Source of the DNA: Parasutterella secunda
Lineage (GTDB): Bacteria; Pseudomonadota; Gammaproteobacteria; Burkholderiales; Burkholderiaceae_F
Reading direction: 5' to 3'
Assembly (NCBI RefSeq): GCF_016901835.1
Contig: NZ_JACJKX010000013.1
Location: 1 to 64,000 of the forward strand
Length of the DNA stretch: 64,000 nucleotides
The position numbers and the translations under genes were made by a program. Numbering within the stretch: the first letter of the stretch is position 1; each line of letters opens with the position of its first letter. A model generated the notes under the pieces. That model saw only the letters and a program-made list of their open reading frames with translations, was not told where the DNA came from and did not search any database. Below, in pieces: positions 1 to 6,171 of this stretch.

Positions 1-89
1 ATTCAAGCTTTCTGAGTATCGTTTGAGACTCAGAGTCACTGACTCGAATAGGAAGTTCAATAATAAACGTCGGACCGGGCATGGAAGCT

Positions 90-222
90 CATTTTACTTC
101 AACGACTCACGTCGTTGCACGGATTCCTCCCTCTGTTAAAACAGAGGGCTTCCTCCGTGATTATTCTGCGAGAGAAGACTTCCTGTGCATGAAGCAAAGC
201 TCCGGCTTGCCAAGGCCGTGTG
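90..222 (-). ncRNA. Orphan omega-RNA-like 3' end of an IS200/IS605 (TnpB-type) element, relic
   Basis: On the minus strand this stretch begins right after the stop codon of the AEC gene and folds into a chain of hairpins. An outer stem (118-123 with 154-159) encloses a perfect 9-bp inner stem (129-137 with 140-148), and a 7-bp stem with a GTGA tetraloop follows (100-106 with 111-117). The pattern of GGAAGCCC, a hairpin, GGGAGGAATCC and then a short hairpin before GTTGAAG is what I know from the right ends of IS605/IS1341-type tnpB elements, where it is the omega RNA. No tnpB gene is present; the adjoining 60 bases could encode a TnpB tail but carry no recognisable domain. It may be a dead relic or a still-transcribed guide RNA scaffold. 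Recognition is by pattern memory only. Confidence 0.45.
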
Positions 223-1170
223 CTAAAGGCGAACGCCTAGCAAAGTCAATGTGATCGGGATCAAAACCGCCGAGAGTATGGTTGAGACAAAAATTGCATT
301 GCTCGCAGCTCCTTCTTCGCTACGAAATTCCGTTGCCATCAGATAAACATTGATGGCAACCGGAAGAGCAGCTGTCAGAACGCAGGCGTTTGTGGTGATT
401 TCATCCAGGCCGATCAATCGGGCAATGATGTAAACCAAAATCGGGTGGATGACGATCTTTAAAGTTGAAATGGTGAAACCCTTAGGAAGTGCGGCGGAGA
501 AGCTATGCCTGGCAAGACCCATACCGACTACGATTAAGGCAATCGGAGTAGTGGCTGAGGTGACGTAATTTAGGGTGCCCGCGAGAAAACCCGGCAGCTC
601 CCATCCGGTCATGCCCCAGGCACTTCCCGTTAAGATGCCGAGAACAACCGGATTTTTGAAAACTTGCAGCATGGATCGTGCAATTTTTCTGAAGTCTTTA
701 TGATCGCTCTCTTTACCCAGTTCCACGCTGGCAATCGCTGTGGTCCATAAAAGCAGCACACTGAAAATGATTAACAGACTGATCGTCGGCATAGCCTCGT
801 TGCCCAGGCTGATCTGCAAAATCGGTACCCCAAGCTGCACGTTGTTGCCGAAAATAGCCGCCATGCCGAAAATAGTTTTGCCGGTATTGTCCAGTCCGAA
901 AAATCGACCCGCTGCACGTCCCAATAGGTAAACGATAATGCAAGAGCCGAAAAAGGCGATGAGTACTCGCCAATCCACAGGAGGCATTTCGGAGAGCCTG
1001 CTCATGAGCGAAAAAAGCAAAGCCGGCATCAGAAACCGAAAGGTGAAACCTGAGAGTGCCCGGACAATAGTTTGATCAAATAGCTTTCCCTTAATCAGAG
1101 CCCAACCGACAATAACCAATAGAAAAAGCGGTGAACAAACTTGAAGGTGGTAGATAAAAAGATCAAACAT
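223..1170 (-). CDS. AEC family transporter (auxin efflux carrier-like permease)
   Basis: A 315-residue integral membrane protein with about ten hydrophobic segments in the two-bundle arrangement of the Mem_trans/AEC family. Bacterial members export or exchange carboxylates such as malate or malonate; the substrate here cannot be told from sequence. The N-terminus (MFDLFIYHLQVCSPLFLLVI) is already hydrophobic, as usual for the family, and the length is typical. The start lies only 8 bases after the stop of the RluA-like gene, so the two are probably co-transcribed. The stop codon abuts a structured relic on the left. A second, clearly different AEC gene lies at 43143-44039. Confidence 0.85.
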   Translation of the reverse strand: MFDLFIYHLQVCSPLFLLVIVGWALIKGKLFDQTIVRALSGFTFRFLMPALLFSLMSRLSEMPPVDWRVLIAFFGSCIIVYLLGRAAGRFFGLDNTGKTIFGMAAIFGNNVQLGVPILQISLGNEAMPTISLLIIFSVLLLWTTAIASVELGKESDHKDFRKIARSMLQVFKNPVVLGILTGSAWGMTGWELPGFLAGTLNYVTSATTPIALIVVGMGLARHSFSAALPKGFTISTLKIVIHPILVYIIARLIGLDEITTNACVLTAALPVAINVYLMATEFRSEEGAASNAIFVSTILSAVLIPITLTLLGVRL

Positions 1171-4761: not shown

Positions 4762-6171
4762 ATGTGGGATCTGTTAATCAAAGGCGCCACGGTTGTGGAT
4801 CCGCTCAATCGAATTGAAGCCGTTCGTGATGTAGCGATTGAAAACGGTCAAATCGCTGAGGTCGGAGTGGATTTGCCGGGAGGTTGTGCCCGTGTGGTTG
4901 AAGACTACACCGGTAAGGTGTTGCAGCCGGGAATTGTGGACAGCCACGTGCATTTGGGGGAAATGTGGGGTTCGCCCTTCGGTTTTAAGATGTTGGCGAT
5001 GGCAGGCGTGACGACCTGTCTGGATATGGCAGGCCCCCTTGATAATGTTCTGAAGAACATTCCGACTTACGGCTCCGGCATTAACTGCGCCATCTTGCAA
5101 TTTGCTTCTCCTCCCTTTACCTTCAAGACCAATGAACCGTCCAAAGAAGAAATGGATGCATTAATTGATCAGTCTATGAAGGAAGGTGCTTTGGGTGTGA
5201 AGCTTTTGGGCGGACACTATCCGCTCAAACCCGCGGTCTCTTCTTTACTTATTAAGACGGCCCTTGAACATGGCGCCTATATTGCTTGGCATGCCGGTAC
5301 CAGTGAACACGGATCCAATATTGAAGGGATGCGTGAAGCAGTGGAATTGAGCCAAGGTAATTTCCTGCATTTGGCTCACATTAATGCCTACTGCCGCGGT
5401 GCCATTCGTCCTGAATTGGAGGAAACGAAAGAAGCCATTGAGTTACTTTTGGCGAACGATCACATCCATTGCGAAAGCTACATTTCACCCAGAAACGGTA
5501 CGCGTCTGACTTGCTTTGAAAACGGCAAGATTCAATCGAAGGTGACCGGAAACTGTCTGAAGCGATTCGGTTTTACCGATGACCGAGACGGTGTTGAGGC
5601 AGCATTTAAGGCCAATAAAGTTTGGGCCGTGTATGACGCGGGCGGCTATTCCGATCTGGTAACCGGAGAAGCGGGTCTGAAACTTTGGAAAGAACACAAC
5701 ACCGATGTGGGCGGCTCCTTTAACGTGAATCCGCCGCTTCCTCGTGTGTGGTTGGCAGAGGCCAAACGCCCGGACGGCAGTTTTGTGGTCGATGCAATCT
5801 CTACCGACGGGGGCTGCATCCCGCGTAATGTGATTCTGGAGCAGGGACTGTCGCTTGTGAAATTGGGCATCCTCACTTTGTCTGAATTTGCGGCGAAAAC
5901 TTCTTTGAATCCGGCTCGTATGTTGCGTTTGGATACGAAGGGACACCTGTCAGTCGGCGCCGATGCGGACATTACGATTTACGATCTGGATACGCAAAAA
6001 CCGGTTGCTACGTTTGTTAAGGGTAAGACGATTTTCAAAAACGGAAAAGTCTACGGCTCAAACGGTACGGTAATTTGCACGAAATATGGTGAAGAATTCG
6101 TAAAAGGCTTGGGAATCAATACGCTTGTGGTTGATCCCGGTAAACCCGTTGCCGATCGTTTCGTTGCCTAA
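4762..6171 (+). CDS. Amidohydrolase-superfamily metal-dependent hydrolase
   Basis: A 469-residue cytoplasmic protein with the layout of hydantoinase/dihydroorotase-type amidohydrolases. It shows a small N-terminal beta domain (GATVVDPLNRIEAV), the first metal motif VDSHVHLGE, a probable carboxylated lysine in LGVKLLGGHYP, later metal histidines in AWHAGTSEHGS and HLAHINAYCRG, and a catalytic aspartate in STDGGCIPR. It ends with the beta-sandwich return segment (GADADITIYDL). The substrate is unknown; a cyclic amide or N-acyl amino acid is likely for the superfamily. ATG 4762 is chosen because AAGGAGAG precedes it and would lie inside the gene if the ATG at 4741 were used. It is monocistronic. 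Confidence 0.75.
   Translation: MWDLLIKGATVVDPLNRIEAVRDVAIENGQIAEVGVDLPGGCARVVEDYTGKVLQPGIVDSHVHLGEMWGSPFGFKMLAMAGVTTCLDMAGPLDNVLKNIPTYGSGINCAILQFASPPFTFKTNEPSKEEMDALIDQSMKEGALGVKLLGGHYPLKPAVSSLLIKTALEHGAYIAWHAGTSEHGSNIEGMREAVELSQGNFLHLAHINAYCRGAIRPELEETKEAIELLLANDHIHCESYISPRNGTRLTCFENGKIQSKVTGNCLKRFGFTDDRDGVEAAFKANKVWAVYDAGGYSDLVTGEAGLKLWKEHNTDVGGSFNVNPPLPRVWLAEAKRPDGSFVVDAISTDGGCIPRNVILEQGLSLVKLGILTLSEFAAKTSLNPARMLRLDTKGHLSVGADADITIYDLDTQKPVATFVKGKTIFKNGKVYGSNGTVICTKYGEEFVKGLGINTLVVDPGKPVADRFVA

What the first reader, a model, noticed from the sequence alone, without database searches (positions are those of the whole stretch)
1..222. Orphan omega-RNA-like end of a TnpB-type element without tnpB
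Seen: on the minus strand a double stem (118-123/154-159 around 129-137/140-148) and a GNRA-type tetraloop hairpin (100-106/111-117), starting right after the AEC stop codon. Known: right ends of IS605/IS1341 elements carry such hairpins, which form the omega RNA guide scaffold of TnpB. Inferred: either a relic of an excised or eroded element or a scaffold kept for a TnpB encoded elsewhere. A solitary guide-like RNA fused to a transporter's 3' end could act on that transporter's mRNA or on a genomic target.
Basis: partly seen in the sequence, partly recalled or inferred. Interest (0 to 1): 0.58.

Follow-up and report, generated by a model that had tools for sequence, protein, structure and literature searches.

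The report
Left end of a tnpB transposon
The hairpins are the start of an ordinary TnpB-carrying jumping gene whose tnpB begins right beside them and runs off the end of the assembled piece, so this is not a solitary guide RNA.

Summary
The hairpins are real, but they are not an orphan omega RNA. On the minus strand, window 167 to 1 is the left end of a TnpB-only IS200/IS605 element. A tnpB start codon (82-80) lies just past the second hairpin, and its first 27 codons run off the contig end (93% identical to an intact relative). The body and right end lie on contig C12. The genome has three left ends and three right ends; all three left ends run into tnpB. Joining the flanks of another copy restores an uninterrupted hydrolase gene, so insertion is precise, 3' of TTCAC, without target duplication. 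The window hairpin matches the IS608-type palindrome IP_L: it covaries, and its 5' loop bases GAAG fit the cleavage site TCAC by the IS608 pairing code. Sister elements with GAAA sit at TCAT (29 and 15 of 52 places, no crossovers; 8 have other letters). The omega-RNA-like scaffold is at the opposite end, after tnpB. No Y1 TnpA was found in the genome, so movement in trans is inferred. Verdict: ordinary insertion sequence cut by a contig edge.

The parts
1..167 (-). Left part of a TnpB-only IS200/IS605 element (left end plus start of tnpB), cut by the contig end at base 1; the rest is on contig C12
168..171 (-). Cleavage/target site C_L in the flank: TCGC here, TCAC in most other copies
149..152 (-). 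Guide tetranucleotide G_L = GAAG, in the 5' arm of the internal loop
   Evidence: function inferred from IS608
118..159 (-). Left-end palindrome IP_L: outer stem 118-123/154-159, inner stem 129-136/141-148
100..117 (-). Second hairpin 100-106/111-117, at element positions +51 to +68; IS608 has a second hairpin at +46 to +60
1..82 (-). First 27 codons of tnpB (ATG at 82-80), running off the contig
223..1170 (-). AEC-type transporter gene upstream of the insertion (context; Pfam PF03547)

Best explanation
The feature is the left end of a TnpB-only (IS1341-type) IS200/IS605 insertion sequence that landed 3' of the AEC gene; the contig ends 82 bases into its tnpB. The two-part hairpin is the single-stranded-DNA palindrome IP_L, with the guide tetranucleotide GAAG in its 5' arm. 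A Y1 transposase (TnpA) supplied by another element would grip this hairpin while GAAG pairs with the cleavage/target site TCAC, so that the element is peeled out and pasted 3' of TCAC. The RNA that guides TnpB would come from the other end, after tnpB. Shown here: element boundaries, precise insertion, tnpB beside the hairpin, covariation of both ends, guide/target match. Inferred: binding by TnpA, its supply in trans, and activity of TnpB.
For: tnpB frame beside the hairpin; three left and three right ends in the genome; precise junction restoring a gene; left-hairpin covariation; GAAG with TCAC at 29 and GAAA with TCAT at 15 of 52 places, none crossed; IS608 guide/site code and second hairpin; hairpins of the same architecture just upstream of Y1 tnpA in G004, G005 and G023; omega-RNA-like right end.
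Against: The genome has no Y1 TnpA, so the mobiliser is absent or lost. No Y1 gene was seen behind a GAAG/TCAC left end among the loci read. The window copy has TCGC, not TCAC, in its flank. Three more of the 52 places fit the code poorly or unclearly (L112, L050, L101). The TnpB scores below the NCBIfam cut-off. Assignment of C12 to C5 rather than C23 rests on synteny.
Confidence: 0.94

Rival explanations
1. A solitary omega-RNA (guide scaffold) left by an eroded element, kept for a TnpB encoded elsewhere or acting on the AEC mRNA.
For: A stable hairpin lies 3' of the AEC gene.
Against: tnpB starts at 82; all three copies in the genome run into tnpB; the omega-RNA-like fold is at the other end.
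Confidence: 0.02
2. The hairpins are a 5' guide RNA upstream of the nuclease gene, as in IscB/HEARO elements.
For: IscB's RNA lies upstream of its gene, and sister elements in G023 with this left-end architecture carry a HEARO RNA.
Against: There HEARO is at the far end from the left hairpin (L119 1371-1610 against 194-246), and here the omega-RNA-like fold is at the 3' end of tnpB.
Confidence: 0.02
3. The hairpin serves mainly as an RNA: terminator of AEC read-through and 5' leader controlling tnpB translation. This may coexist with the transposon-end role.
For: It lies between AEC and the tnpB start codon and folds well as RNA. IS200 precedent is recalled, not looked up.
Against: No run of T follows it, and the terminator scan lists no terminator there. 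The guide/site match is not explained by an RNA role.
Confidence: 0.1

Closest known systems
IS608 (ISHp608) left end, IS200/IS605 family
   Same: Subterminal palindrome, guide tetranucleotide 5' of it that fits the flanking site, second hairpin downstream, insertion 3' of a tetranucleotide without duplication
   Different: Site TCAC instead of TTAC; no tnpA in the element or the genome
IS1341-type (TnpB-only) elements
   Same: Only a tnpB-like gene between left and right ends
   Different: TnpB lacks the zinc-ribbon cysteine pattern and falls under the family cut-offs
ISDra2 TnpB and its reRNA (omega RNA)
   Same: Structured RNA-like right end spanning the 3' end of tnpB and ending at the host flank; candidate TAM equal to the insertion site
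   Different: RNA binding and cleavage not tested here; site TCAC, not TTGAT
PATEs (palindrome-associated elements) of Haloquadratum
   Same: Solo palindromic IS605-type ends without genes occur in relatives G001 and G023 (L050, L083)
   Different: The copy in the window is not gene-less

Membership tests
IS200/IS605 family, TnpB-only group | Subterminal palindromes at both ends | tested here: met
IS200/IS605 family, TnpB-only group | Precise insertion 3' of a short fixed site, no target duplication | tested here: met
   (one insertion restored); flanks of 52 places
IS200/IS605 family, TnpB-only group | Guide tetranucleotide matching the cleavage site at each end | tested here: met
   the window copy has TCGC, off at the third base only
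IS200/IS605 family, TnpB-only group | tnpB gene between the ends | tested here: met
   C12 copy frameshifted
IS200/IS605 family, TnpB-only group | Mobilised by a Y1 TnpA | tested here: inconclusive
   no PF01797 match in the genome; present in 46 of 67 family genomes
TnpB RNA-guided nuclease | RuvC Asp/Glu/Asp | tested here: met
   D232, E338, D419 (first-sequence numbering) invariant in nine aligned proteins; assignment to RuvC motifs is by eye
TnpB RNA-guided nuclease | Zinc ribbon (TNB domain) | tested here: not met
   no four-cysteine pattern in the aligned proteins; Pfam TNB 13.6 bits, cut-off 26.3; no Pfam match for two relatives
TnpB RNA-guided nuclease | NCBIfam guided_TnpB over cut-off | tested here: not met
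   56-75 bits against 100
Omega RNA, for the window hairpin | Lies at the 3' end of tnpB and runs into the host flank | tested here: not met
   hairpin is 5' of the start codon
PATE / solo end, for the window copy | No gene between the ends | tested here: not met
   tnpB attached

The most novel reading that the evidence does not exclude
TnpB-only elements in Sutterellaceae use the same kind of left hairpin as Y1-bearing and HEARO-bearing sisters but have switched target from TCAT to TCAC by one guide base (GAAA to GAAG): a natural retargeting of a shared transposase, with the TnpB target motif presumably shifted to match.
Probability: 0.3. Interest if true: 0.5.

Novelty: new member of a known kind. 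Interest (0 to 1): 0.2.

Why it matters
It removes a false 'orphan guide RNA' and shows how a contig edge inside a repeated insertion sequence can imitate one. It also gives a natural series of matched guide and target letters in sister elements, which could test whether non-autonomous TnpB elements retarget a shared transposase.

Tried and rejected
Rfam on the window start (none), on the C12 right end (only sub-threshold noise) and on five relatives (HEARO in L119, otherwise sub-threshold). Exact-pattern scans: one viral-contig hit with no TnpB relation looked into further, no genome-contig hit. No TnpB relative in viral contigs. The PDB profile search gave only chance matches. Plasmid tblastn found distant TnpB-family proteins, all under 60% identity, in 24 records, not used further. 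No structure prediction was run. An empty-site comparison at the AEC locus was not possible because the relatives' intergenic regions differ. Rejected: orphan omega RNA, solo PATE, IscB-like upstream guide RNA. The purine internal loop GGAAG/AGGAA could form tandem G.A pairs; not tested. Papers: PMC5934647, PMC8612924, PMC8266576 and PMC3119063 were seen as passages only; the others only in search listings.

Full report
What is there. The window starts at base 1 of contig C5 of a 1.98-Mb, 98% complete genome in 73 contigs. Its genus includes G004, whose element-bearing contig has the length of a Candidatus Aphodousia faecigallinarum contig that encodes the same protein (Sutterellaceae, Burkholderiales). 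What it could not see is that the minus strand beyond them, 82 to 2, is the start of a protein: 27 residues matching the first 27 residues of an intact TnpB-like protein of a relative at 92.6%. Window bases 1-88 are also the last 88 bases of contig C12, where the frame continues into a tnpB of about 490 codons that is frameshifted by one extra A in an A-run (7 A on C12, 6 in G006).

Copies. A DNA search of the own genome found the left end on C5, C23 (97%) and C17 (91%), and a 29-base overlap on C12. A covariance model of the left hairpin found three places in the own genome, and a right-end pattern three, on C8, C12 and C13. Five of the six are within about 300 bases of a contig edge and the sixth, on C12, is 1.5 kb from one, as a collapsed repeat gives. 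A second, diverged TnpB-like gene of 496 codons is intact on C4 (41% identity).

Boundaries and insertion. On C8 the right end truncates an alpha/beta-hydrolase gene; on C17 the left flank encodes the missing C-terminus. Joined directly they restore one open frame (..AVLLIHGEKAYSSYFSED..) like the genes of five relatives (relatives). So the element begins AGAATAATCACGG, ends GTTGTTTAG, lies 3' of TTCAC and makes no duplication. In the window it begins at base 167. In two relatives (L053, L054) the AEC gene is followed directly by msbA on the other strand; C12 carries msbA, pepP and then the right end, so C5 and C12 probably flank one copy. C23 shares the same overlap, so this pairing is inferred.

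Left hairpin. In 12 distinct sequences 95.8% of cells pair, 10 of 14 pairs change on both sides, and the covariation score is 0.637 against 0.170 for shuffles; slid versions reach at most 0.214. The sequences were chosen for this motif and the structure was read from them, so the pairing percentage is favoured; the compensatory changes are the telling part. The GNRA loop of the second hairpin is not conserved.

The code. In IS608 the cleavage site is not read directly by the transposase but pairs with a tetranucleotide 5' of the hairpin: C_L TTAC with G_L AAAG, C_R TCAA with G_R GAAT, with A+16:T-3 and A+17:T-4 (passages of PMC5934647; that the fourth bases pair is recalled). Here the four bases before the inner stem are GAAG and the flank is TCAC. 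The model was searched in 67 family genomes and 26 have matches. I read 52 distinct places for which loci were held, not all that one search found: GAAG with TCAC 29, GAAA with TCAT 15, none crossed. The other eight: the window copy (GAAG, TCGC: off at the third base only, which the code does not pair), L112 (GCAC), L050 (a solo palindrome, TCAA), L095 (GGAG with CCAC, which fits), and L098, L099, L101 and L102 (variant or unclear). Copies within G023 are near-identical, so these are not 52 independent events. Six distinct end types, read by eye, fit at 18 of 18 pairs, reached by 1 of 720 reassignments. In subfamily 2, L011, L023 and L028 show CAAA with TGAT, whereas L024 and L025 have nearly perfect palindromes that do not show it, and L044 fits 2 of 3 (sequences printed, read by eye).

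Who moves it. The own genome has no match to the Y1 transposase family, nor do G002, G003, G006 and G008 of the genus; 46 of 67 family genomes have one. Y1 genes of G004, G005 and G023 lie just downstream of left hairpins of the same architecture, of the GAAA/TCAT kind. Movement of the tnpB-only elements in trans is therefore plausible but not shown.

The guide RNA end. The last 122 bases of the element fold at -48.7 kcal/mol, z -6.3. In 11 aligned right ends, two helices of this fold pair in 93.9% of cells, with 12 of 21 pairs changed on both sides and a score of 0.497 against 0.252 for shuffles. In ISDra2 the RNA bound by TnpB comes from this end plus about 16 bases of flank, and the TAM equals the insertion site (passages of PMC8612924). 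By analogy TnpB here would use the right-end RNA and a TCAC TAM. Activity was not tested.

Protein. Best family is NF040570 guided_TnpB, 75 bits for the C12 part and 56-74 for three relatives, under the cut-off of 100. Pfam gives only a sub-threshold TNB-domain match for the C12 part and nothing for two relatives. The presumed RuvC Asp, Glu and Asp are invariant in nine aligned proteins, and no zinc-ribbon cysteine pattern is seen.

Verdict. The finding is the left end of an ordinary, multi-copy TnpB-only insertion sequence, misread because the contig stops 82 bases into tnpB.

Noticed in passing
L014 (C8) 176-1174 and the end of L007 (C17): A copy of the element splits an alpha/beta-hydrolase gene whose two halves lie on different contigs.
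   Followed up: yes
L006 (C12) 4984-4987: The stop codon of pepP lies inside the element's right end, so the insertion may have trimmed the gene's 3' end.
   Followed up: no
L050 1500-1551 (G001) and L083 1501-1553 (G023): Solo palindromic left-end hairpins with extended symmetric arms and no TnpB or TnpA match in the fetched locus (tblastn with three TnpBs and one TnpA); PATE-like.
   Followed up: partly
L118-L122 (G023): Repeated elements with the GAAA/TCAT left end; in L119 an HNH-containing, IscB-like frame (read by eye) runs towards the left end and a HEARO RNA lies at the far end.
   Followed up: partly
L006 (C12), tnpB A-run near codon 107: One extra A breaks the tnpB frame (7 A against 6 in G006); decay, assembly error or programmed frameshift cannot be told apart.
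   Followed up: no
L018, L011, L041 TnpB proteins: TnpB-like proteins with the presumed catalytic residues but no zinc-ribbon cysteines, yet with a covarying omega-RNA-like right end in the L018/L041 group.
   Followed up: partly
window 168-171: The window copy has TCGC instead of TCAC in its left flank, the third base that the guide does not pair.
   Followed up: no
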